NCBI RefSeq assembly: GCF_020921035.1
Contig: NC_063156.1
Coordinates: 28,134,283-28,198,282 of the forward strand
Direction of reading: 5' to 3'
Source of the DNA: Rhodamnia argentea
Lineage: Eukaryota > Streptophyta > Magnoliopsida > Myrtales > Myrtaceae
Length of the DNA stretch: 64,000 bases
In this document: positions 12,180 to 54,545 of the stretch, one piece after another
How positions within the stretch are numbered: position 1 is the stretch's first letter
Layout of the letters: the number at the start of each line of letters is the position of its first letter
Notes under the pieces: generated by a model
What the model saw: the letters and a program-made list of their open reading frames with translations, nothing else
Told to the model about the DNA's origin: nothing
Databases searched by the model: none
Made by a program: the position numbers and the translations under genes

Positions 12180-13065
12180 GGATTCGCTATTCCTTGTACG
12201 AGAACTGATTCAAATGACTTTTCATGCAAACTTTCCCTTGCAATTGGTGCGAACATTCAACAAAACCAATTCATAAAAGCCTTTCGTGTGAATTTTCCCT
12301 AGTGTATCAAAAATCACATGGAACTTTTTCAAGTGCCTATAAAAAATCACTTAGTGCAAACTTGCACGAGAACTTATTCAAATGACTTTTTGTGCGAATT
12401 TTCCCCTGCAATTGGTGTGAACATTGAACAAAACCAATGCACAAAGCTTTTCATGTGAACTTTCCCTAGTGCCTATCAAAAATCACTTGGTGCGAACATC
12501 ATGCGAACTTTTTCAAGTGCCTATCAAAAATTTGCACGAGAACTAATTCATGCGACTTTCATGCGAACTTTTCCTTGCAATTGATGCGAACATTCAAAAA
12601 ATCAATTCACAAAGCTTTTCAAACAAACTTTCCTAATGCCTATAAAAAATCACTTGGTGCAAACTTGCACAAGAACTAATTCAATCGACTTTTCGTGTGA
12701 ATTTTCCCTTGCAATTGGTGCAAACACTGAACAAAACCAATTCACAAAACTTTTCGTGCGAACCGTCCCTTGTGCCTATCAAAAATCACTTGGTGCGAAC
12801 ATCGTGCGAACTTTTTCAAGTGCCTATAAAAAATCACTTAGTGCAAACTTGCACGAGAACTAATTCAAATGACTTTTCATGCGAATTTTCCTTTGCAATT
12901 GGTGCGAACATTCGAAAAACTAATTCACAAAGCTTTTCGTGCGAACTTTTTCCAATGCCTATAAAAAATCACTTGGTGCAAACTTGCACAAGAACTAATT
13001 CAAACGACTTTTCGTACGAACTTTCCCTTGCAATTGGTGTGAACATTTCAAAAAATAAGGTTTAG
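12180..13065. repeat. Degenerate satellite-like tandem array, about six units of 130-185 bp
   Basis: The phrase 'gcac(g/a)agaactaattca' recurs near 12199, 12366, 12536, 12668, 12851 and 12985. Each copy is followed by 'gacttttcgtgcgaa', 'cccttgcaattggtgcgaac' and 'cctataaaaaatcacttgg'. Spacing alternates (about 167, 170, 132, 183, 134 bp), so some units lack an internal 35-50-bp block. Open frames through the array arise from the repeat and have no coding signature. Confidence 0.8.
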
Positions 13066-25141: not shown

Positions 25142-27426
25142 TTAATCGGATCCAAAATGCCACTCGCTCGCGTAATACGAGTTCGGCAGGCCCACCCAGA
25201 ACTTGAACGCCTCGGCCGCTCTCTTCCGCTCCACCCTCCTGGCTTGCCTGGCCTGAGAAGCGTGCTTGCTGGTGAACATTCTCGAATGCATCTCCACATA
25301 AATCCTCTTGTACTTGGTCTTGTTAGGTGAGATCCCATTCTCTTCCATGCACGCCACGATCTCCAAGGCCTTCCTGAAGAAAGCGGCCCTCACGCATATG
25401 TCGGCGAGGGCATCCAAAAGGCCCTCATCCGGTTTCAACGGCGGGAGAGACGGCGAAGTATCAGGTTTCTCGCATTTTTTACTCGCTCGACACCTTTCCT
25501 TTATCTCATTCCAGAGCAAAAGGGCCTCTCCGGGTTTCCTGGCCAAGGCAATGCCACTGGCAAGACTACCGTAAGTGGCGACATCGGGGTATGCCCCGTT
25601 CTCTTTCATCCTCTGAACAACCTTCTTCGCTTCTTCAACCAACCCAAGTTTGCAATACCCTTCCACCAGCATGTTCCAAGCTGCTGCATCGGGTTTCACT
25701 CTTGGATCTTGGATCATCTCGTCGAACACCTTGTGCGCCAGCTTCGGTTGCCCAGATGAGGCAAATGCTTTCATCAATGTAGTGTAACTGATCTTGGTTG
25801 GGGCAATCCCTCTCGCTCGCATCTCGTTGAAGAATTTGAGCGCCCCCGTGCTGTCATCAATTAGTATACATCCGTCGATCAAGGTATTGTATGATACCAC
25901 ATCAGGCCGTACCTCCGCGTCGCTGGCCATTTCTTTGATCAACTCCTTGGCCTTGTCCATCTGCAGTTGCTGGCAGTAGCCCTTCAAGATTATGTTGTAG
26001 GTGATCCTATTTGCAGGAACACCAATTCTTTTCATCTCAGCAAGCACCCGACGTGCTTGATCCATCGACCCGGCCTTCACTTGCGCAGAAATGACAGTAG
26101 TGTATGAGATGTGGTCTGGATGCCTAGAGCTGTCTTCCTCATGCTGCATTGCCTCTAGCATCCGGACTGTGTCCTTCACACGTCCCGTCCTCATATATCC
26201 CTTCATTAGGGTAGTGTATATTCTGGAATTGGGAGCGTATGAATTCGGCAACAATGGAGGGTCGCCTGAATTCGGTTGGATTGAATTTGGAAGCAACTTC
26301 GCAAACACAACGATTTCACCATCATCTCTAACCAAATCTATTGTCTTCAATACTTGTTCATATTCATCTTCATCTTCCTCCTCATCACTCAAATCTTCCA
26401 TATTGGCATCCCTCAGAATCTTGCAAAGATCTCTCCTTCCTTCTCTCATAGCCTGCACTATCTTCCCTGCAGTATCCAAGTCGCCAAAACCAACATAGGC
26501 AGCGACGAGTGAATTCAACGTAGTCATGCACAATGGAATTCCCTTCAAAAGAATCATCTCCAACACACACACAAGCAAGTCCTTCCTATCTACTCTAGCA
26601 CACAACTTAATCATCACGTTATAAGTCAACGCATCAGGCTCAGCTCCGAACTCGGGCATTTCATCGAACAGTTGCGAGAATTTCCCTGTGTCGCCCAAGT
26701 TGGCGCACGCGTTGAGCGCCGCATTGAACGCGGCCGTGTCGGGCCTCGAGTCAGCCACCACAGCAGGGTCGGCGACTTTACGAAGCCGCCGCGTCACGGC
26801 CTCGAAGAGCCTGAGCGCCTCCGCTGGGCCGTCGTCGCCGGACGCGGAGAGGCGGCTGACGACGGCGCTCCAGGCCTTAACGTGGGGGAGGTAGCCGGAG
26901 CGGAGCATGGACTTGACAACGGAGGAGGCGTAGAGGGTCTGGCCCGCCTTCGCGGCGGCCACGGCGAGGAGGCCGAGGGAGTTGGCGTCGAGGCGGCGGA
27001 GCTGGCGCTCATCGCGGAGGCGCGTGAGGATGGACTGGGCGCGCGTGAGTCCCTCGAGGGTCTTCTGGTAGGACAGCTGCGACACCAGGCGGCTGAGGCA
27101 GGTGGGATTGGGGAGGTGGGCGGACTGCGTGTACGCAACCCAGGCTGCCTCCGTCTTCCTCTGGCGAAGGAGGGTCAGGAGCTTGGCGTCTTGAGAGTAC
27201 GGTTTCGGAGGAGCGAGAGTGGTGGCGGCCGGGGAGGAGAGAGAGAGGTCTCGCGTGTCGACTGTGCCGTGGGCGCAAGATGGCCACTTGGGTTGGGCGG
27301 TGGTGGGGGAGGTCGTGTTGGAGGGGGAGGCGGCGGAGAGACGCGGTGGAGAGAAAGTGAGCGGGAAAGTGGAAACGGAGTGGGGGTCGGTGAAGAGGAG
27401 GAAGTGGGAAGTGATAGAGGGTTCAT
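25142..27426 (-). CDS. HCF152: Chloroplast PPR protein HCF152 (At3g09650 type); N-terminal frame problem
   Basis: A long open frame carries about a dozen P-class pentatricopeptide repeats (for example PDAAAWNMLVEGYCKLGLV, ITYNIILKGYCQQLQMDKA). It ends WVGLPNSYYASEW, like Arabidopsis HCF152, which is about 780 aa. HCF152 binds the plastid psbB-psbT-psbH-petB-petD transcript and is needed for petB processing. An acidic insert DLSDEEEDEDEYEQ lies mid-protein. The PPR frame is open to 27583, where the codon is GTG, and has no ATG for about the first 200 codons. The only suitable ATG (27426) is in a different frame. It encodes MNPLSLPTSSSSPTPTPFPL, a plausible transit peptide, and stops near 27175. 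A one-base frameshift (genomic or assembly) between about 27190 and 27400 is likely. No introns are visible. Confidence 0.85.
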
Positions 27427-28750
27427 CACTGGTCCATCGACGGAGGAATCCTTGAAGAGTGTCTGAACTCTTCTCCTTCTCTTCTGCTCCTCTGAGAGTA
27501 GTGAAGATGGAGGGACGAAGAAGGTGGAGAGGATAATGACAGAGAGAGACAGAGTTCTTACTTGCGCGCTGTACGGTAAACACGTGAGCCCTTCCAATTT
27601 ATATCGTTAGATTATGTGGGCCCCCTTTCCGACCAGCATCATCCAATGGTTGAGATGGACTAACACGGCTACTCCAAGTGTAGGATAGAATTGCTCGAGT
27701 GGAAGAGGGATGGACAACGTCGAGCATATTCTGTCCCCTCGTTCTCGTCACCTCGTTGGTTGGTCTATCCAGGACCGGTCACTGGATTCATTTCGCATTT
27801 TCAAAAGTTACTGATAAACTCATTAATTATTGTCATGGGGATTTTGTTAAGGAATCTCTGTTAATTGGCGTGGACATAAGTTCTTTCTTTTCAAACCTTT
27901 CAGGCACTGATTTTTCTTCAATAATTACATGTGCGCCTTAAGAAATCTCATAATTGTAGCAGCTAAGGCTGACAAAATAAAAAGTTGGACGCCATAACTT
28001 CGGAACGAAGATATTGCAATTGAAAGATCGAGCATTTGAAATATTCATACATCGAACTTTATGAACTCCACTTGGGTGTTCACCTAGTCAATTTACTCAT
28101 CTAAACCGGTCTCTTTCAATTGTCAAGTTCCATAAATTCGTCCCCCCGCATCTTTTAAAGTTAGGGCCCTCTAGATGTATTAAAAATCTTAATAGGATTC
28201 AATGCCTCTCGTAAAATCGACCTCATTAGAACTATGATTGCATTATCGCCATTTGATATGGTTCGGATTGAAGATGGAGCCTCCACTTTAGGCAGGGGAG
28301 AAAAATTTGGAGGAGAGGAAGCATGACTTGGACAAAAATATGGAGTGCATAATTTTCAAAATTGATATCTTAGGTTACTCAAAAAGTCCTAAAACCCTAA
28401 TTTTACCTTATTCAGAATAAGTTATTCCACTAGGGTTTTGCTTTTAGCTTTGGAATCGGGAGAGAGTGCACAAATATGATTACTCGAACCTTGGCCTTGG
28501 CCTTAGGAGTGATGAACACAATTACCACTTAGATGATCAGGGCTAACCCTAATCCTGACATCATAACCAATTGTATCAGCTGGGCCACCACATTCATGGG
28601 AGGGATCGACTAGGCAGGCAATTCTTATCATGAACACCAAATCCACTTCTTCATCCCAGACAAGAAGGACAACAATCTCCAGCCGCACCCAAGAATAAAC
28701 AGGAAGTATCACGAGGGATGATTAGTGGAAAAAAAAGGAAGTGAAAAGCT
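27427..28750. other. HCF152 upstream region and spacer to the receptor kinase 3' end
   Basis: A G-box-like cacgtg lies at 27581-27586, just upstream of the HCF152 coding region. The rest is AT-rich and shows no supported gene. The segment closest to 28750 is probably 3' UTR of the kinase. Confidence 0.35.
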
Positions 28751-31700: not shown

Positions 31701-34700
31701 CTGTGAACGGCGGTGTTAAGATGCTACTGGTAAATAATTGGACAACAATACAGGAGCAGCAAAAAGTATGGAAAAATAAAAACTCAGTTTGAAAAAAAGA
31801 TGAACCAAGTCCAGATATAGCTATATATAGGGATTAAAAGAAATGGTTCAGAAAAAAGTGAAAAAGTAGTGACACAATTTGGTAGCAGAAGCTATCTGTA
31901 ATGCTGTGATCCCATATCTGGGGCTACTGCACCTAAAATTTCAGAAATGAAAATCAAACTCCTAAAATATGGATCTCACATTGTTTCACTATGAGAGAAG
32001 TATAAATTATCTAATTATAATTGAATTGTTCTGCAAAAGATTGTGGCAGCTACAACCGTAGATTGAAGCTATTAGAAGGCACGGCACCACGAAAAACTTA
32101 ACAACAGAACAAGCCATTTGCTATAATCAGCCGATCAAAAGTTAATCCAATTAGCACAAAACGCAAGAAGGTGACAGATGAAGGATCTCTACAGATCAAA
32201 AGGCGAACCCCTAACACAATGTTACAGAATGACACAGAATACTTCAGTTTTCGGCTAGATAAGGATCCGAGCTCCAAAATGTCTGGAATCCACATCTGAG
32301 AAACCTTTCAGTCAAATAAATAAGGCCAACAGTAAATACTGGATAATTTTTATGACAAAGTAAAGGTGTGTTGGGAGGTCTGGCCAACAGCCATACTTTT
32401 AACTCATCTACCCCATCATGCCAACACAAATAAAAAGTTTCCCTTGCTTTAGCTGGCCCTTCGCGATTAGACCAACATACACAGAATTTAAACTAAATGT
32501 GATGAGATAAAGTGTAATGTGTGCATTGTTTCAGGAGCATTCAGCATCGCAGTAAAACTTAATCAGAAGTTGTACCCACTTCAGATTCAACTTTTTGTTG
32601 AGAAGACCAGATGGCACCGTGCCTGATAACATGTTATTCTGGACATACCTACAACCATCAAATTTAGCATGTGGGTAAGGTTTTTACTCAGGTACGGAAT
32701 AAAAGCTACCACCGAAAATTGTTCATTAATCAACAATTGCATCAACACTTCATTCAAGGCCCGATAATCACATATATCAGTCAGATCCACATGTGAAATT
32801 CATAAACACAATGTGCTAGTTACTTGAATCGTCGCCGTGGTAAATGAGAAATCCTCATGTAAGTTTATGAACACTTACAGTTCCTTCAAGTTTGGCAGAG
32901 TTGCGAGAGAGGAAGGCAGCTCACCAGTCAAGTGATTGTTCTCAAGATGACTATCACAAAAGAAATTCATCAGCATTAAATTTTCCAAGTCCATTCAAAG
33001 AGGACAATCCATGGAGCTTACATGATCTCCAGGTTCATGCATGAAGAAAGATCAGGTATTGAACCAGTGAGTGAATTCCCGTCAAGCCACCTTCAGAAAA
33101 AAGCCAAGGCATACTTCAAAATAAGACATGAAAAGTTCGAGCATAGACATTGGAAAGAAATAAACTACTATCAAGTGGAAAAGGAACTTCTACATAAACT
33201 TACAGCTCAACCAATCCGCTCAATTTTGCAATGTCTGAAGGAATGTTTCCGGTCAAATTCTTACTAGATAATGTGCTGCAGAAATACAATTTATAACTTC
33301 AAAGCTTGATCATCCATACGGCGTTGACATGCTCCTAGAATAAGAAATGTGATCACAAAAGCACTTCACAAGAAGTAGACATATACACTGCAGTTATCAG
33401 TGGAGGCGAATCTGAGCTGCAGCGCACCCATGTCCATGGAACTGGCAGGCACGGGTCTCCACCTTCCTGTGCCCAAGCTGCTGAGGTATAGGGTGAAATT
33501 ATGCTAGCAATAACTCCTCCTGCAGTTCATGGAAAAACCGTAAGCTAAACAAATAAACTTCATATATCATGCTCACAAAGGGCAGATCCAGCCTAATAAA
33601 ATAGATGTGCCAGAAACAGGGCTCTACAAGCTCACACCAAGTGATAAATCACAACATGATCATCACATTAGCAGCAATCTTACAAACTACAAACTCAGTG
33701 GAAATTGATCAAGGGACTTACCATCTGGAGAACCATCGATTTTCTTCACATACTTGTTTATTTCCATGGCATTCAATAGTGGACCCTTCGAAGAATCTAT
33801 TGTCCGCGCGAACTTAAAGGACAGTACAAATGGGAGGGTTATGTTCACAAATCCTGGCTCATACAGGCGATACTTGCCTTGAGCATTTTCAATTATATTG
33901 ACAACAGCTTTGCTGATATCAGGTGAGCCTGGGAGGATCAGCTTGAATTTTCTCGTGTCATTGGGAGCCAAATCTTCGATCTCTGCAAAGTAGGAATATG
34001 CCCAGCCACAACCGAGAAATCCGTCCAAGTTCAAGCGGTAAGTTAGTAATCCATTTGTTCCGACTACAGCAGTCTGCATAACTTTTCGAGGTGGCTTCTC
34101 ATCATGGTTAACATCAATTGGCAATTGGGTTGACACCTTTTTTGTGCCAGCAGCCACGTCGACAAGGTAGTTTGCTTTCTTTACAGAGTCAGACTCCCAT
34201 ATTCTATCGAATGGATCATCTGGATACCTAATAAAGAAGAACTGCATGTGAGCAATAAGGATGACCAACTCATTTGTAGTATAGACTCTTTTCACCCAGG
34301 AATCATAAAATACACATGTTTTCCACTTCTTCTTAAATTGCAAAAGCCATGGTCAGAAACTAGTCAAACAGCCGAGCAATAAAAGCTGGAACAAATACAT
34401 ACACAATGTTCTAGATATACCTGACTGGCTCTTCACTTTCTGCACCAAAATTAATCCGGGCAGAGGTACCGAGATAAAACTGGTTTTCATAGTCAGTGTA
34501 GTACATCGAACCATTGAACTGACGGAGCTCAAGGGTAGATATGAATGGCTTGCCTGTAGTAGCATTAGATAGGCACACATCGATGGTAGGATCTGAGGCC
34601 AGAAATATGAGCTCTCTCACTTCTATAGTACTGGCATCAGAAATGGCAATCGTGGACCAATAAGTAGGTCCCAGGGAGATCTCGAAGCTTGGGTACACGT

Positions 34701-42323: not shown

Positions 42324-42333
42324 CCAAGGAGTC
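42324..42333. repeat. Left target-site duplication of the large TIR element
   Basis: CCAAGGAGTC directly abuts the terminal GGCTAATTCCC. The identical 10-mer abuts the other end at 49285-49294. Confidence 0.85.
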
Positions 42334-43114
42334 GGCTAATTCCCTAAAAAAGCACCAACTTTAGGTCTAATGATGATTATGGCCCGAACTTTGTTTTGTC
42401 TCATAAAAAGGCATCAAATTTAGGTCCAATGACGATTCCGGCCCGAACTTTTTTCATCTCATGAAAAAGCCCCAACTTTAACTCAAGTCCCAAATCCGAC
42501 CCCCTTAATTTGGAACCATTAGTTGTCCAACGTGGCAATCACACGTCATCAATAAATCCACGTGGCTTATTGATGTTGATTTAAGGCACTATTTATCGTT
42601 TTCTTAGCACGGAATTTGAAATTATTCATCCGCTTGATACCAGAAAGGAGCGGAAGCAAGAACTTGATCTAAGACAGATATGCTATCCCACACGGGCTCT
42701 CCGGCCACTCAAGGGACCGCCTGTTAGTCTCTAGATCTCGCTCTTGGAACTAATCCTTTAAGACATCGATTTCTGATCCACAGGATCCACTATCCATTAC
42801 CACCATAGGTTTATCCCGATCAAACATTGGATAGATCCAGCGCTCACTTGCGAAGTTAATCAACAAGTGGAGAGAGGCCCCGCCGGACTCTACGCGCGCT
42901 TTAACCCAATATTGGATCTAACAAACTTTCCGGATGATTACTGCATTCGTGGCAAGTGGAGAGCATACTGAACCAACCATCATAATAGAGAAGTAGAGAC
43001 ATTTTAGCACGTAAGAATCTGCTCAAAGAGAAAAGAGGAAATTTTTTTTTAGAAACTCATGAAGCAAACTTTTACTTGGATTTTACAAAGGAGGCCGAGT
43101 TCTGCCCATTACAG
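42334..43114. repeat. Left terminal inverted repeat of the large element
   Basis: About 781 bp. The outer ~310 bp matches the inverse of the right end. A middle ~290 bp does not match. The inner ~180 bp (about 42930-43114) matches again, including an inverted copy of the ORF1 start (ATG at 43059 on the plus strand). The outer part contains about 2.5 tandem units of ~58 bp built on 'aaaaagcaccaactttaggt' and 'ggcccgaactttt'. Confidence 0.8.
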
Positions 43115-43126
43115 AGGTAAACACGC

Positions 43127-43137
43127 CTTATATAGGC
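43127..43137 (-). promoter_or_regulatory. TATA-like near-palindrome at the inner edge of the left TIR
   Basis: The minus strand reads gcctatataaggcg just after the RT-containing frame ends. A pararetrovirus promoter would be expected there on a circular map. The surrounding word is almost palindromic. Promoter activity is inference. Confidence 0.35.
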
Positions 43138-43409
43138 GAACACACCAAGGAACCTCTATAATTGAGGTTCAATAAGTACGCGCAACCAACATTGACTTCG
43201 GAGGAAGCCAATATTACAGACAAACACATACAAACAAACTCTGCTGCCTTGCTTGACCATTTTTACAAAGTGGAGCAGGAGAGTAGGTAAACACACGACG
43301 TCTTCTTCTTAGAGTTCCGAGGAAGCACATGGCTTTGTCTGATGGAGCAGGTGGTGTCAGACGGAGAAAATGGATGGGCAGGTGGCCATGTCTGACGGAG
43401 CAGGTGGCA

Positions 43410-46370
43410 TTATCGTCTCCCGTCCGGGTCGGGATGATAATTGGCGTCGTCCGAGTCAGAGCTGTCTGGTCCATCATAGTCAGAAGGGCCATCTTTCTGA
43501 CTTCCGTAGGCTCGCAATAACCGCTCTTTTTCATAGTCTGAGATGATTTGGTCCAAGTGTGGGTCATGTGGAACGCCCGAGGTGTTTCTGGATGAGGAAG
43601 GGACGTCGGGCATGACGGGTTGTGGGTAGCTGTATGGATCTTGTGACAGCTGTCCGCCCCATGGATCAAAGGACCGAGTATCTGTGTCCATGGAAGAGCT
43701 TGGTTGATTGTTGTTGTACTCTTGGAGGGCTTCGAATACATGAGGATGGGTCCTGGGTGTATCCCAAGAGTAACTCACTGAAATGTAAGGCCATATTTCA
43801 GGTGGTATAACCTTATTCTCTTGGCAGAGTATTCGCTGGAGTTCTCTGTATTCATGAGGAATGTCAAATACGTCCCTGGAGTACGTCTTGTGAATCTTGA
43901 AGACTTGATCTTGGAGTACGTGCTTGAAGGCGGTGGTGCCTGTTTTCGCAGCATTGGATCTTTTATCTCCCGAGGGTCCGATGAATGACCAGGGATGATG
44001 AAAAAGGACAACTGTGTGTCCGCAAGGTTCCGGTCGACTAACTTGTCTTTGAAGAATGAACAAGTGTTTCCATGCTTGAAGGGGTTGGAACCAAGTGAGA
44101 ATATCAAGGAAGAACTTCTGGGGATGGTCCCGATAATTTCCAAAAAGAGAGTCAGACAAAACCTTAATGATTTCGTCTAAAGGGAATTCTATGGCAACTT
44201 GGTAGAGATGAAACATGAACCAAAACATCCATTTTAAATCAGAAGGGAAAGGGATGGTAGAAGACCATCTTAGTGGATGTATGAACGGATAATCACAATT
44301 GAGGCCTGGTTTGAGGAATAATCCACCATAATCTTTAAAGATGACATAGTGATAATTCCAGAATAACCTGTGAAAATTTTCAGAGAGGGAATTCTGTTTG
44401 AGGAGTGGAGGAATATCGGGTGGATACCGGTGTGATGGCCACCGGTGTTCACGCATGTTCTGGGTTTTGAAGGATCCTGAAAACTCTTTTCGAATAAACA
44501 TGTTTATGGACTCGAAAGGTTCTTTTGGCCTGGAAAAGAAATCAGCCAAAATATTTTTCTTTCCGTAAATGTGTTTTGAATCGAAAGAGTATTTAGAAAA
44601 CCATTCAGCCCAACGTAAGAGTTGAGGATGAGGAACTTGTTTTTGCTTGAATTTGAGCATCCGAGGAAAAGAGGACATATCCATTTCGACTAGAAAATGA
44701 TGACCAATAAGATGAAACTCAAATTTTTTGATTCCATTTTTGACTGCAAGAATTTCTTTGAAAGTGGAGTGGTAATGCATTTCGCGCCGAAAACTTTCCA
44801 CTTTTATATGCACAAATTCTTCGCTTACCTTGGTTTTCTTCAAGGAGGATGGTCGCCCAAAGTGTTTGTCACCGGCATCCGTCTCGAAGGATTCTCGGTT
44901 CCAAGTGGAAGGGATCCGGAGAGGAGGCAAATTTTGCAAGATTTCCTTCAAAGTTTTAATGGAAGTGGTTTGTTTTTGTGACCAAGGGGGAGGATTCTTT
45001 TTCAACATCTTTTGCAGAGGAGAAAGGACTCGAGAAATTTTTGGGATGAAATCTCTGAGATAATTGACAATTCCTAAAAAGGATTGAATCCGGTGAATGG
45101 AGAGGTTTTCATCCGGGAACTTCTGAAGATCTTCCGCAATGTGTGGACCAGGGCAATAGGTTCCATTTTTCAGTCGCATGCCGAGAAATTCAATTTCTCG
45201 TTGAGCTATGATCATCTTCTTCTGTGACAGCATGATGCCATGAGTATGCACAATTTCAGCAAATTGTTGAAGGAGTTTTGCATGAGAATGTTCATCATGG
45301 GAAAACAGGAGAATATCATCAATGTAGATCCGGGCATTGGCAAGGATGGGTTGGAAAATTTTGCACATAGCCTTTTGAAATAAAGACGGAGCAGTTTTAA
45401 GTCCAAAGGGGAGGACTTTCCATTGGAAGTGCTGGTTAGGGATGCAGAAACCGGCCTTGAATCTGTCCGAGGGATGAATTCCTAATTGCCAGAAGCCCGC
45501 CTTAAGATCGAATTTGGAATAGATCTTGGCCTGGGCGAGGCTAGAGAACAAAGAGTTCTTATGGGGCAAAGGGAACTTATCATCTTGGATAAACAGATTG
45601 AGAGGCTGGTAATTTATGACTAACCGCAGCTTTCCACGATTTTGTTCTGCTCTTTTGTTGACATAAAAGGCTTCACATGCCCAAGGGGAGTCAGAGAGCT
45701 CAATGAGTCCCCGAGAAAGAAGCCGAGCACATTCCGCTTGTGCTAGAGCAAGGTGATCCGGGTTCATGCCCGAATGGCTTGCTTTGGTGGGATTGATTTC
45801 TCCATTTTTCTTAAAGGGAATTTTGACAAAAAAGTCAGAGTTTTGCCAAAGAGGGTTGGAGCAGATCCGAGCAAACCGCCGATGAGATTCTGAACAATGA
45901 GAGAGAAGAGATTGATAGATGGGATCAAGGATTTCCGGTTGGATGAGAAAGAGTCTCCGGATTTCAACAAACTCCTGGAACTTCTTTTGAAATTTTAACC
46001 CCTTAGGGTTAATCTTGAGCCGTGGAAGTTTAGAGAGAATATCCCACCCAATGATGAGGTCTTTGTCATGAGATGGACATCCAAGGATTTGGGTAGTGAT
46101 TTTACAACCGGGGAGGATATGAATGGTGAGAGGTTTACTACGCAGTTTGGTAGTAAAAGTTTCTCCCGAGGCTGCCCGGAAATATCCGGTATATGGTGTC
46201 CAAAGATTCTTCCGGGAGGATTTTGGTATCTAGCGGGGATGCAGATGCGCCAGATCAATGAGGGCAATGACTTGGATGGATTTTTCTCGAAGGTGGATCT
46301 GGACTGGAAAATGTGGGGGATGGAATGTAGGGGAGTGGATTCTGAAAGAATCAACAAGAGGAAAGAAGGA
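43410..46370 (-). pseudogene. Pararetrovirus-like protease-reverse transcriptase-RNase H frame (decayed)
   Basis: One frame runs from about 46370 to the stop near 43410, broken by a TAG at 46230-46232 inside the protease. The protease active site reads ALIDLAH instead of D-T/S-G, and IIGWDILSKLPRL follows. Reverse transcriptase starts at about 45960 and has KIPFKKNGEINPTKASHSG, FDLKAGFWQ and the catalytic YIDDILLF (about 45301-45326). RNase H has ETDAG, HYHSTFKEILAV and ADFFSRP. The open stretch from 45767 to 43410 is 785 codons. About 340 residues beyond RNase H form an aromatic-rich, then proline/aspartate-rich tail with no recognised domain. The broken protease suggests the copy is dead. 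The family is plant pararetrovirus-like, not an LTR element, since no integrase or LTR is seen. Confidence 0.8.
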
Positions 46371-47460
46371 GAGAATATCTCCCGGGCCGAGTCCGAATCA
46401 GAAGAGTAAGTTTCAATGGCACACAAGGTGTCTGGAGACGGTTCTTCTTCAATGGAGAAGATGGATTCAACGTCTTCATCACCGAGAGATATCCCAGTGT
46501 TTTGAGAGATTTTCTGGATCATGTAACTCGCCTGTTTCTTTGCTTGGGGGCATTTCTTTGCAAAATGACCCTTTTTGTTGCGTATATAACATCCGTCAGA
46601 CTTGGGGTTTTTTGCGGTGCTTTGCGTAACGACCGTGTGATTTCTTTTCGAGGAATTTCCACTTGCTTCTACGAGGCTTCGCAAATGAAAACTTCTTGAA
46701 ATGAACTTTCTTCTTGTGACCCGAGCGAGACGGATCATTACGATCTCTGGTGCACTTGATCTTCCATTCTGGCCTTTCACAGTTCTTGTCATACTTACGA
46801 TTTTCTTTCAAGAACTGGTCGAACTGTCTTTTTCTTCTGCATTTTTCTTCAATGGCAATATGAACAGCTTGCTGTATTTCTCCGAGTGTAGATTCAAGGA
46901 GAGGCCTTTGAAGATGCTTATCAACTTCATCTGCAATCTCTTTAGGGATGGAGGCTAAAAAGATTGGTTTGAGATTGATGTCTGCTCCGAGATGATAAAA
47001 GAGTCGAATCATCTCTTTGAAATGTCTGTCAAGATCTTTTCGAGAAGTGGAGCAACATTTTCTTTCGAAGAACTCCTTTCGCTTGAGTTCTTTTTCACCG
47101 GTGGGTTGACCAACAAAATACGAGTGGATGAGACCGCATAGCTCCGATTGAAGTTCATCGGGAGAAAAGCAATTTGGTCCTCGTTTCGAGATAGAGGTCC
47201 ACCAGTCTTTCGGGGTTCCAATGAACTTGCTAGTGAATTCTAAGAGAACCTCATAAGTGCTTTGTTCGCCTAGATTTCGGCAACAAGCCATGTATGGAAC
47301 TCCTGGATTTTCATGGGCCAACGATGGTAAGGAACATCATCAAAGGTAAAGTATGTGCTTGATGAGGAATGGGCCGGACGAGATGATGGGCTTGGATCCG
47401 AAGGGGTTTTAAGATTGACAAATTCCACTTCTTCATCTTCTTCTTTTGGGATCGCCGCAG
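46371..47460 (-). pseudogene. Pararetrovirus-like capsid (Gag) region with zinc knuckle, frameshifted
   Basis: The capsid-like part includes FTSKFIGTPKDWW and a basic tail. It is followed by a knuckle that reads CYIRNKKGHFAKKC, where the second Cys of C-x2-C-x4-H-x4-C is Arg. Acidic serine-rich sequence comes after. At least three frame changes are apparent: near 47275, near 46610 (between the capsid and knuckle) and near 46390 (before the protease). Caulimovirid capsids carry this knuckle for RNA packaging. The breaks show this copy is not functional. Confidence 0.75.
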
Positions 47461-47513
47461 ACCATCATAATAGCTGGGATTTGGCCCGAAAGTTCGGGAT
47501 CATTTTCGGATTC

Positions 47514-48677
47514 TCAAGAAGGAGATGTTTCTGACGGTGGTACGGATGATGTCGAAGAGGAATCATCTTGTTCAATGGCTTGAATTGTGGAAATGGATGG
47601 AATTTGTTTCCTCAAAAAACTTTCAATGGGATTAGAAACCATGAATGAAGGTAGCTTCTGTGAAGGGGAATGTGGAGGTGAGTCGGGAGGTTCTCGTGGT
47701 GCTTGGGGAGGAATTGGAAAAGTAGGAACCGATGATGAAGTGTCGGAGAATTTTGTTCTTTCGGCATCGCCTTCACCTTTCTTGATTGCTTTGAGACGAG
47801 CACGAAGAGCAAGGACATTTAGACCTGAGTCCGAAGGTACTGTCTCAAGAACTTCTTGGAAAGGGGACGAAGAAGTTTGGCTAGAAGCCTGTGATGGACG
47901 GGTAGTAGGATGTGTATGAGAAGGGAATAAGGGAGCAGGGAAAGTGGATGAGGGAAAAGGTGGTCGATACTCAAGTTGAGCTTTCTGATTTTCAAGAATG
48001 AGGATCTGTCTCTTCGACTTCTCTATTTGAGGAGTCTGATCTTCTAAATAATGATGATGGAGCTGCTGATTTTCCATCATGTAGACTCTCTTTTGAAAAT
48101 CTGCAAGCATCTTGCGGATGTGTGTGGAAGCTTGATCAACTCGATCTACTTGAGTGGAAACTTTCTCAAGAGCCACATTCTGGGCTAGGGCATTTTCTGT
48201 TTGCCAATTGAGAACAGTTTGAGATGGAGCTGGACCTTTCTTTTTCCCATGTGGGTCAATCTCGGTTGGTGCGGGTATTTTAGGAGCATGGTAGTACTGT
48301 TGCTGAGGGTCAGAAAATTTTCTGAGTGGTGGAAAATTTAAAGTGGATGAGTGAGATTCATCTCCGGGCCGAAGGGGAGGAAAATCGCCAGGTTGGAACA
48401 TACAAATGCTTGGAAGTGGTGCGGGGATAGGGGCACATGGTTTTGGGAGATCAATGGAACAAGTTGGATTTTTCTTGATCCATTTTTGGATGGGTTTATA
48501 AAAGGGACCGGTAACGTGTTTCTGAGGCGGTGTTGGTGGATATTTTGGGGGGTCCGGTTTACAAGAGGATAAAGAAGGAATTTGGGGTATTGGTGGAGTG
48601 CCATACTGAACAAGGTATTGCCTGTAATGGGCGTAACTCGGCCTCCTTTGTAAAATCCAAGTAAAAGTTTGCTTCAT
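47514..48677 (-). CDS. ORF1 of the pararetrovirus-like element: proline-rich, coiled-coil protein
   Basis: An uninterrupted 387-codon frame with a true ATG at 48677. The first ~19 residues (MKQTFTWILQRRPSYAHYR) lie within the right inverted repeat. A proline-rich stretch follows, then a coiled coil at about residues 180-240 (ALEKVSTQVDRVDQA, MLADFQKRVYMMENQ). The C-terminus is Ser/Pro-rich. Similar proline-rich/coiled-coil segments sit upstream of capsid in some endogenous pararetrovirus polyproteins. The role is unknown. It is the only intact frame in the element besides the RT part. Confidence 0.6.
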   Translation of the reverse strand: MKQTFTWILQRRPSYAHYRQYLVQYGTPPIPQIPSLSSCKPDPPKYPPTPPQKHVTGPFYKPIQKWIKKNPTCSIDLPKPCAPIPAPLPSICMFQPGDFPPLRPGDESHSSTLNFPPLRKFSDPQQQYYHAPKIPAPTEIDPHGKKKGPAPSQTVLNWQTENALAQNVALEKVSTQVDRVDQASTHIRKMLADFQKRVYMMENQQLHHHYLEDQTPQIEKSKRQILILENQKAQLEYRPPFPSSTFPAPLFPSHTHPTTRPSQASSQTSSSPFQEVLETVPSDSGLNVLALRARLKAIKKGEGDAERTKFSDTSSSVPTFPIPPQAPREPPDSPPHSPSQKLPSFMVSNPIESFLRKQIPSISTIQAIEQDDSSSTSSVPPSETSPS

Positions 48678-49284
48678 GAGTTTCTAAAAAAATTTCCTCT
48701 TTTCTCTTTGAGCAGATTCTTACGTGCTAAAATGTCTCTACTTCTCTATTATGATGGTTGGTTCAAGATGCTCTCCACTTGCCACGAATTCTGTAATCAT
48801 CCGTAAACATAACTTGAAGGACGACGGTTTCGTCTCCTTTACTTCATCCACAAGCATCAGCTGTTTAATTGGAATCCGAAGTTGTGTATGTCCACTCGGG
48901 AATAGACGCCATGGACGAGATCGCCAAGCTCACGACTAGAGTCTTCATTTTTTAACAAGCCTCACCCTATCCCCTCCCCAAAGCGGATGAACAACTTCAT
49001 ATTCCATTCCAAGAAGATGATAAATAGTATCTTAAATGCACGTCAACAAGCTATGTGGATTTATTGATGATGTGTAATTGTTATATTGGATAACTAACGG
49101 TTCCAAATTAAGGGGGGCCCGATTTGAGACTTGAGTTAAAGTTTGTGCTTTTTCATGGGATGAAAAAAAGTTCAAGCCGTAATCATCATTAGACCTAAAG
49201 TTGGTGCCTTTTTATGAGACAAAAAGAAGTTTGGGCCATAATCGTCATTAGACCTAAAGTTGGTGCTTTTTTAGGGAATTAGCC
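48622..49284. repeat. Right terminal inverted repeat of the large element
   Basis: About 663 bp, the inverse of the left repeat. The outer ~300 bp and inner ~180 bp match the left arm, and the middle is unrelated (about 120 bp shorter than the left). It carries the leader and first codons of ORF1. Confidence 0.8.
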
Positions 49285-49294
49285 CCAAGGAGTC
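49285..49294. repeat. Right target-site duplication of the large TIR element
   Basis: CCAAGGAGTC is identical to 42324-42333 and abuts the terminal ...GGGAATTAGCC. Confidence 0.85.
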
Positions 49295-52314: not shown

Positions 52315-54545
52315 TTACTGGGAGACACCGAGCCATTTTGAGAAGTTCTCAAACTCTGTGTAGTCACTATCCGAGATCATAGTCTGATACCATGCCTTCC
52401 CTGCAGACTTGATCGCAGCTGCCTCCTCCTATCAGGCACAAGAGAAATTGATAGGGCAAATCAAAAGGCTTAGATATAGTTGCACAGTTGAAGCATTTCT
52501 ACTTGGGAAAAAGAAAGCTGCAAGCAATGGTCTAAGACCACAAATGATACATTGCCCCAATAAATATCTAGAGATGTGAATATAATAGAAGAATTTGAAT
52601 GCCTACAAACTTGCAAAGCATCTCCAATAGACAACAGCAGGATAAGGACGCAGATTATTTAACCCTCTTATATATTTATTGCTGAGAGAGAGATGCCACC
52701 GTCAAGGTTATTGACAACTCTTGACAGTTGGTTGTTTTTGGAAAAGCGGCTAATGCAGAAATTAAATTAACAAGAGACAGCTGATATATATGAGAGCAAT
52801 TATTCCATCACCACCTACGTTAATATGATATGCCCCGTACATAGCTCACTCTTTTCACCTTAGCAAGTCCCATGCATAGTAGTATAGCCCCAACTGTAGC
52901 TATTAATAAGTATCGTAATGAAATCTCTTAGCACAATGAATCCTACAGACTGGAAAGTAATTTAACCATTTGTAGAGTTGAATACCTCCCATATACTATC
53001 AGAGACCATGTAAGAATCACACGCAAGAAAAGAAAAATTAACATTTCTTTTTCCTATCAGATGCATTTTGAGTTTGATGACATGGGTCCATTTGCCCATC
53101 AAGTCTATTGTCTTCGAAATCTGACAACATAAGTAAGACAATTATGATTCCTATGGCACGTGGCTTGCATCCTAACTCAACACCAGATTGACAATCCATA
53201 AGACAACATGGTAAAGACATAAGGCAAAACCGCGGAAGATGTGGGCATGTATTGAGCGTCCAAGGAACTCCTGAACAAAAGCGAGTATCCATCCAAACCT
53301 TACAAAGGTCTACATATATACGTAGGGACATTATGACCATTACCGTTCCGCTACAGCATGCTCAGAAAGCATCAAAGTCCAGATATCAATGCCCACAGCA
53401 GAAGAGAAAAGTAATCGAAGACAAGCAAATGAAGGACGTACCTTGGTGATGGGCTTCCTCTTCTTGTCAAGCTTCTCCTTCTTAGCCTTCACACGCTGCT
53501 CCTCGGCCAACAGAGCCATCCTCCTCGCCGTCTTTGCGTACGGGTTCAACCTCAACATGGTGTTCAGATTCTTCAATGGATTCTTCTTCAGAGGGGCCCT
53601 CTTCACGTCCTTCTTGATTGGCCTCACCACGGACTGAACCTCATCCGAGTTGATGATCCTGGACAGATCAGCATTCACCATCTTGGATCTCGGCAACAGG
53701 TACCCCTTCTTCTTCTCGGATGGCTTATCGAAAGACCCAAAGATCGAATCCAGCTTCTCGAAAGCCGACTTGGTCCAGATAACGAACCTGCCTAGGTGCC
53801 CGCCCGGGGCGAGCTTCAGCAGATTGAGCCTATCGACATTGGCGACCTCCACACCGGGGATGTTGCGGAAAGCCTTCTCGATCTTGGCTCCCTCAGTGCC
53901 GTACACGATCAGAGGTCCCTTCCTGTTGATGTAGCGACGATTGCGCATCTTACCCTTGCCGGGCCTTATCCCCTGGCTGTCCTTGGCCTTCTCAGCATCA
54001 GCGTACGCGCCAATCTGCTTCAGGATCTTGATCGCGGCCGGAGTTTTCTCCACGCCCTCAGCAGAGTCGCCGATCACGAGGGGCATCTCTGGAACGGACT
54101 CGATCCTGTGGCCACGGGCCATCACGAGGGAGGGAATGGCGGTGGCGGCGATGGCAGAGGCGACGGCATAGCGCCTCTGATTCACGTTGACACGGCGATG
54201 CCAGCGGCGCCAGATCTTGGTTGGGGCGAACATGCGACCGCCACGGCACATGTTGCCGAAGGCACCCTGGCCGGCGCGGTGGGTGCCGCCGCCGGGGACG
54301 CGAGGGATACGGGAGACGGCACGGCCGGTTCCCCAGGACTCGGCGGAGGTCTGGTGGCCGGCTTTCTTGGAGACGGCGTAGGGCTGGCGGGAGTTCTTCG
54401 AAATGTTGGAGTGGACGAAGGAGACGATGTCGGGGCGGATGGAGGCCTTCATGACGTCGGGGAGGGGAACGGTGACGGCGGAGTCGGTGGCCATCTCGCC
54501 GTCCAGGGATTGGATGGTGACGAGGGGGCGTGCGGCTGCGGCCAT
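52315..54545 (-). CDS. RPL4: 60S ribosomal protein L4 (uL4)
   Basis: Two exons, 53442-54545 and 52315-52428, join in phase 0 after KKRKPITK to give 405 aa, as in plant uL4. The N-terminus is [19 protein letters not shown]. The uL4 extension region [20 protein letters not shown], which lines the exit tunnel, is intact, as is the [11 protein letters not shown] segment. The C-terminal exon ends in [12 protein letters not shown]. The 1013-bp intron contains no recognised element. Open frames on the opposite strand over exon 1 are GC-driven shadows. Confidence 0.97.

What the first reader, a model, noticed from the sequence alone, without database searches (positions are those of the whole stretch)
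42324..49294. Pararetrovirus-like coding block enclosed by long TIRs and an exact 10-bp target duplication
The termini are perfect inverses and CCAAGGAGTC flanks both ends, a DNA-transposon signature in the Mutator-like size range. The cargo, however, is a Caulimoviridae-like ORF1-capsid-protease-RT-RNase H array, which normally integrates without TIRs or target duplications. Either a non-autonomous Mutator-like element captured an endogenous pararetrovirus and moved it, or a TIR-bearing pararetroid lineage exists. TIRs, duplication and RT motifs are seen directly; the mechanism is inference.
Basis: partly seen in the sequence, partly recalled or inferred. Interest (0 to 1): 0.9.

Follow-up and report, generated by a model that had tools for sequence, protein, structure and literature searches.

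The report
Fossil plant virus inside small transposon
A broken, truncated copy of an old plant DNA virus landed in the middle of a small hairpin-shaped jumping gene that was probably already sitting in the chromosome, so the inverted ends and the duplicated target site belong to the jumping gene and not to the virus; it is a nested insertion of two ordinary things.

Summary
The features are real but belong to two separate elements. The outer inverted repeats (302/304 bp, 86% identical) and the exact 10-bp duplication CCAAGGAGTC are those of a ~789-bp non-autonomous Mutator-like MITE repeated in this 347-Mb genome. Empty copies exist: the window's two MITE flanks, placed side by side, align across the joint with 19 of 20 fetched copies, 91% end to end with L010 and L012, with a 10-bp gap at the joint. 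In that spacer lies a ~6.17-kb, 5'-truncated, frame-broken endogenous caulimovirid (nearest named relative Citrus endogenous pararetrovirus, 54%). Of 40 listed RT places, 39 lie 594 kb or more from any listed TIR match and the other is this locus. No MITE sequence was found in 40 virus loci, and no viral sequence in the 20 fetched MITE stretches. Both virus-MITE junctions are found whole only here: 1 of 31 and 1 of 35 matches. The inner inverted pair is a viral fragment repeated in inverted orientation at the virus's right end. The left viral end lies in the tRNA primer-binding site. Best reading: accidental end-joining of viral DNA into a MITE.

The parts
42324..42333 (+). left target-site duplication of the MITE (CCAAGGAGTC)
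42334..42635 (+). left arm of a Mutator-like MITE (outer TIR); junction with the virus within a base or two of 42634
   Evidence: 85.9% to right arm; 43 listed matches in own genome
42636..48807 (-). endogenous caulimovirid insert (about 6.17 kb, 5'-truncated, frame-broken) in the MITE spacer; left end inside the tRNA primer-binding site
42927..43114 (+). viral 3' region segment at its native place (same relative position in L041, L042, L043, L044); counterpart of the inverted copy at 48622-48807
43410..46229 (-). open frame with end of a protease-like region, RT, RNase H and a C-terminal region without Pfam match
45995..46807 (-). broken frame with an incomplete CCHC-like stretch (nucleocapsid-like)
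   Evidence: no Pfam hit
46596..47336 (-). broken frame resembling the capsid region of caulimovirids (by eye)
   Evidence: no Pfam hit
47514..48621 (-). 5' polyprotein part; its true upstream, the movement-protein region, is missing here
48622..48807 (-). inverted extra copy of viral segment 42927-43114 joined to the truncated 5' end of the virus
48808..48980 (+). rest of the MITE central spacer
48981..49284 (-). right arm of the MITE (outer TIR)
49285..49294 (+). right target-site duplication of the MITE (CCAAGGAGTC)

Best explanation
A ~789-bp non-autonomous Mutator-like MITE with 300-bp arms inserted here by a transposase and made the 10-bp target duplication (supported by anatomy and by other copies with their own duplications). 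Later (inferred order) a linear or gapped DNA molecule of a petuvirus-like caulimovirid was joined into the MITE's central spacer, most likely by end joining at a double-strand break (inferred): about 10 bp of the MITE are missing at the joint rather than duplicated, the left viral end lies in the tRNA primer-binding site (minus-strand discontinuity), and the right end carries a 186-bp inverted fragment of the virus's own 3' region joined to a truncated 5' end. The insert looks inert: no integrase domain found, no movement-protein region, broken frames.
For: Empty MITE copies: the window's joined flanks align across the joint with 19 of 20 fetched copies, 91% end to end with L010 and L012, with a 10-bp gap at the joint against L009-L012. 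MITE copies have own duplications: 10/10 in 5 of 18 (L013, L015, L016, L019, L021) and 9/10 in 4 more (L009-L011, which are one event, and L027), each with 0 of 2000 displaced draws. Virus family: 40 listed RT places including this one, the other 39 at 88-97% and 594 kb or more from any of 43 listed TIR matches. No MITE sequence in 40 virus loci (some overlap) and no viral sequence in 20 MITE stretches. Viral unit and native order from L041 and L043. Both junctions whole only here: 1 of 31, 1 of 35. Left end in the primer-binding site here and in 5 of the 6 other ends that run into non-viral sequence, among 25 places. RT-RH is closer to caulimovirids: PDB 8r0s 288.8 bits against 180.8 for Ty3 (7q5b); CitPRV 54% over 423 residues.
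Against: Genome-wide lists are capped (40 scored of 258 TIR and of 147 RT candidates), and the fetched MITE stretches are short; for L020 and L028 only one arm was seen, so an insert beyond the stretch would be missed. In the other copies with a clear duplication it lies one base outside the arms, in the window directly at them. No orthologous empty site in a relative was available, so the order 'MITE first, virus second' is the simplest but not proven. Long reads were not available.
Confidence: 0.94

Rival explanations
1. The virus first inserted into a MITE elsewhere and the composite (6.95 kb) was then moved here by a Mutator-like transposase, a Pack-MULE-like event.
For: The 10-bp duplication flanks the whole composite exactly, and a MULE can carry several kb (recalled knowledge).
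Against: Both junctions are found whole only here (1 of 31; 1 of 35), so no donor locus or second copy is seen; the duplication is equally explained by the MITE alone, whose other copies have their own duplications. A cut-and-paste move would leave no donor, so this is not excluded.
Confidence: 0.05
2. A pararetrovirus lineage with its own terminal inverted repeats that integrates with target duplications.
For: Only the anatomy of this single locus.
Against: 39 of 40 listed RT places are far from any listed TIR match; the 20 fetched MITE stretches have no viral sequence; the four ~8.5-kb virus loci show permuted or rearranged virus without these TIRs.
Confidence: 0.005
3. Assembly artefact joining a virus contig to MITE arms.
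For: Long reads were not available to check.
Against: The two junctions fit one empty MITE with a 10-bp gap and identical 10-bp outer flanks; the locus lies within a contig of 30 Mb.
Confidence: 0.005

Closest known systems
Non-autonomous Mutator-like elements / MULE MITEs (PMC3310237: abstract, outline and introduction seen)
   Same: Long TIRs (100-500 bp in that text), 9-11-bp target duplication, multiple copies; the 20 empty copies are too short to code for a transposase (inference from length)
   Different: This copy is interrupted by a virus; the transposase partner was not identified here
Endogenous caulimovirids related to Petuvirus (Citrus endogenous pararetrovirus P0040; AcV1, PMC4411674, passages seen)
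   Same: RT-RNase H sequence; in relatives the TGGTATCAGAGCC primer-binding site, a movement-protein region and a unit of about 7.3 kb; no integrase domain found; rearranged multicopy integrants
   Different: 54% identity to CitPRV over 423 residues; this copy lacks the movement-protein segment and has an inverted 3' fragment at its 5' side
Florendovirus and rice eRTBV insertions: (TA)n targets, ends at viral discontinuities, end joining (PMC4241990 and PMC526188, passages seen; PMC10377300, section 3.1 read and passages seen)
   Same: A virus end at a strand discontinuity, loss of a short target sequence, target able to form a hairpin (predicted)
   Different: The target here is the spacer of a long-armed MITE, not a TA repeat
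Pack-MULE
   Same: Foreign sequence between MULE TIRs
   Different: The insert interrupts the spacer of one copy and is not seen elsewhere; no sign of capture by the element

Membership tests
Mutator-like element (MULE), non-autonomous | long TIRs (100-500 bp) | tested here: met
   302/304 bp arms, 85.9%; definition from PMC3310237 introduction
Mutator-like element (MULE), non-autonomous | 9-11-bp target-site duplication, different at each site | tested here: met
   window 10/10; 10/10 in 5 of 18 other copies and 9/10 in 4 more (three of them one event); the other 9 of 18 have 8/10 or fewer
Mutator-like element (MULE), non-autonomous | mobilised by a MULE transposase with matching TIRs | not tested
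   the search for PF10551 in the own genome did not complete
Caulimoviridae (endogenous) | RT-RNase H of the caulimovirid branch | tested here: met
   by similarity scores; no tree was built
Caulimoviridae (endogenous) | movement protein | tested here: not met
   no PF01107 hit in the window frames; present in relatives L041 (1.4e-11) and L043 (4e-08): this copy is truncated, the lineage has it
Caulimoviridae (endogenous) | initiator-tRNA-Met primer-binding site and circular genome | tested here: met
   TGGTATCAGAGCC in relatives, permuted order with a ~7.3-kb unit in L041 and L043; cut inside the site in the window; circularity itself is inferred
Caulimoviridae (endogenous) | no integrase | tested here: met
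   no integrase domain at E <= 0.01 in the 7 window frames scanned
genus Petuvirus | groups with PVCV in an RT tree | tested here: inconclusive
   nearest named virus is CitPRV, which PMC4411674 places with PVCV (passages); no tree made here
Pack-MULE (captured and moved cargo) | cargo acquired by the element and carried to further loci | tested here: not met
   both junctions whole only here, 1 of 31 and 1 of 35; empty MITEs align across the joint

The most novel reading that the evidence does not exclude
Long-armed MITEs act as traps for viral DNA: the empty ~789-bp MITE (L010) is predicted to fold into a giant hairpin (-223 kcal/mol against a mean of -75 for 20 shuffles), whose spacer extrudes, breaks and takes up gapped caulimovirid DNA as filler, extending the known bias of caulimovirids for hairpin-forming (TA)n sites to foldback transposons; the nested viral inverted repeat could then feed small-RNA production. 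The evidence is one locus and a folding energy.
Probability: 0.15. Interest if true: 0.4.

Novelty: new member of a known kind. Interest (0 to 1): 0.15.

Why it matters
It shows how two ordinary nested elements can look like a new hybrid mobile element, and it gives a clean example, with empty copies of the target at hand, for reading how caulimovirid DNA joins a plant chromosome (primer-binding-site end, loss of about 10 bp, inverted viral fragment at the other end). It does not point to a new class of transposon or virus.

Tried and rejected
Considered and rejected: TIR-bearing pararetrovirus lineage; Pack-MULE-like capture with movement (kept as a 5% rival); the inner inverted pair as a second transposon (it is viral, and its left member is at the same place in four relatives). 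Led nowhere: searches for papers on a pararetrovirus in a MULE or MITE (only listings and abstract beginnings seen; no title or abstract beginning there described such a case; nothing wider is claimed); comparison of the movement-protein segment with the CitPRV polyprotein P0040 (no meaningful match). No RT tree was made, because the only named virus I saw among the 120 listed of 416 hits was CitPRV.

Dropped or limited: TIR and RT lists are capped at 40 scored candidates. Four MITE copies (C3, L009-L012) share their host flanks and count as one insertion. L056 continues natively for 37 bp only and was counted as continuing. In one search L023 gave 4/10, its left end being uncertain; the control drew 2000 times from displacements of 50-250 bp on one side only. 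The odds of the best explanation were not changed by this.

Full report
What is in the sequence. CCAAGGAGTC stands at 42324-42333 and 49285-49294 and nowhere else in the window as an exact match. Between them the outer arms 42334-42635 and 48981-49284 are inverted repeats, 85.9% identical over 304 bp, with 40 identical bases at the tips and 59-bp tandem sub-repeats in each arm. A second inverted pair, 42927-43114 and 48622-48807 (95%), lies inside and is separated from the outer one by sequence without inverted match. The minus strand carries an RT-RNase H frame, 43410-46229 (RVT_1 1e-27), preceded by broken frames up to 48683.

The shell is a MITE. In the own genome (346.7 Mb, unnamed) the left arm has 43 listed matches (40 of 258 candidates scored), several in closely spaced inverted pairs. 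Twenty loci were fetched, 1.4-2.1 kb each. The element most like the window's is about 789 bp: arm, spacer of about 190 bp, arm. The window's flanks 42334-42634 and 48808-49284, put side by side, align across the joint with 19 of 20 copies and end to end at 91% with L010 and L012; against L009-L012 the joint shows one 10-bp gap. L020 aligned on one side only; L018, L019, L027 and L028 align over the first 439-447 bases shown. Of 18 copies tested, 5 have an exact 10-bp duplication and 4 a 9/10 one (three of these are one event on C3), not reached in 2000 displaced draws; the other 9 score 8/10 or lower. In these copies the duplication lies one base outside the arms, in the window directly at them. 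Long arms and a 9-11-bp duplication are given as the mark of Mutator-like elements (PMC3310237, introduction read). The search for a transposase partner did not complete.

The cargo is an endogenous caulimovirid. The RT-RNase H matches PDB 8r0s (named 'Enzymatic polyprotein' in the output; that it is cauliflower mosaic virus is my recall) with 288.8 bits against 180.8 for Ty3 (7q5b). Its best protein relatives are plant genome proteins (Hibiscus, Gossypium, Citrus and others); the one named virus I saw among the 120 listed of 416 hits is Citrus endogenous pararetrovirus, 54% over 423 residues. An 801-bp RT piece has 40 listed places (40 of 147 candidates scored): the window itself and 39 others at 88-97%. 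Four of these were read at 8.2-8.5 kb. L041 and L043 show that the coding strand runs from 48622 down to 42635, then through 1335-1343 bp absent from the window, then to 48622 again, a unit of about 7.3 kb. The missing stretch codes for a movement protein (PF01107) and follows the TGGTATCAGAGCC site, the primer-binding site reported for the related AcV1 (PMC4411674, passages).

How the virus lies in the MITE. The left viral end is inside that primer-binding site. Of 25 places with this viral end (the 24 viral-half matches and the window), 15 continue natively (L056 for 37 bp only), 3 turn into rearranged virus (L041's second place, L051, L054), and 7 run into sequence that matches neither the viral pieces of the window nor the movement-protein segment; 6 of these 7, the window included, break in the primer-binding site (L044, L049, L055, L063, L065), and L064 some bases before it. 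L051 and L054 also break there, into another part of the virus. The query was that end itself, so breaks far away could not be seen. The right viral end is a 5'-truncated virus at 48622 joined to a 186-bp inverted copy of its own 42927-43114 (96.2% to its partner, 88-94% to four relatives; the partner is 95.6% to L043). Inverted viral fragments are also attached in L041, L042 and L070, and two RT copies on C8 lie in opposite orientation.

Shell and cargo are separate. 39 of 40 listed RT places are at least 594 kb from any listed TIR match; the fortieth is this locus. Forty virus loci (L030-L044, L046-L070, some overlapping) hold no MITE sequence and the 20 MITE stretches hold no viral piece at E 1e-5. 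The left junction is found whole only here; of the other 30 matches 24 have the viral half and 6 the MITE half. The right junction is found whole only here; of the other 34 matches 31 have the viral half (one of them the native copy within this same insert) and 3 the MITE half.

Mechanism. Shown: a MITE with a duplication at its ends, the insert in its spacer, a 10-bp gap against empty copies, the left end at the primer-binding site, the inverted fragment at the right end. Inferred: the order of events and end joining. This agrees with what is in print: no virus-encoded integrase, gain or loss of short sequence and hairpin-prone TA targets (PMC4241990, passages; PMC10377300 section 3.1), and junctions at discontinuities in endogenous rice tungro-like virus (PMC526188, passages). 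The empty MITE L010 folds to -223 kcal/mol against a mean of -75 for 20 shuffles, so its spacer may be a fragile site; this is an idea from one locus.

Verdict. A nested insertion of an ordinary endogenous caulimovirid in an ordinary Mutator-like MITE.

Noticed in passing
window about 42636-42645 and L044, L049, L055, L063, L065: Viral ends of separate endogenous copies break inside the tRNA primer-binding site: 6 of 7 ends running into non-viral sequence, among 25 places.
   Followed up: partly
L041 7558-8498, L042 5087-6535, L070 1470-1703, C8:17943595-17952304: Inverted viral fragments or oppositely oriented copies recur in this endogenous virus family.
   Followed up: partly
L051 and L054 (C11:15.339-15.346 Mb): Two places where the viral end at the primer-binding site is joined to another part of the virus in the same way, flanks 97% alike.
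   Followed up: partly
L009, L010, L011, L012 (C3:7.53-8.77 Mb): Four MITE copies share the same host flanks, so they look like one insertion multiplied by duplication of the region.
   Followed up: no
43410-44525: C-terminal region of about 370 residues after RNase H has no Pfam match, though one plant homologue aligns over 97% of the query.
   Followed up: no
12193-13058: Tandem array with periods of about 135-168 bp and shorter ones.
   Followed up: no
53340-54545; 25142-27583; 33687-34343; 1844-2650: Ordinary plant gene frames around: ribosomal protein L4, a PPR protein, a malectin-like frame and a GT43 frame.
   Followed up: no
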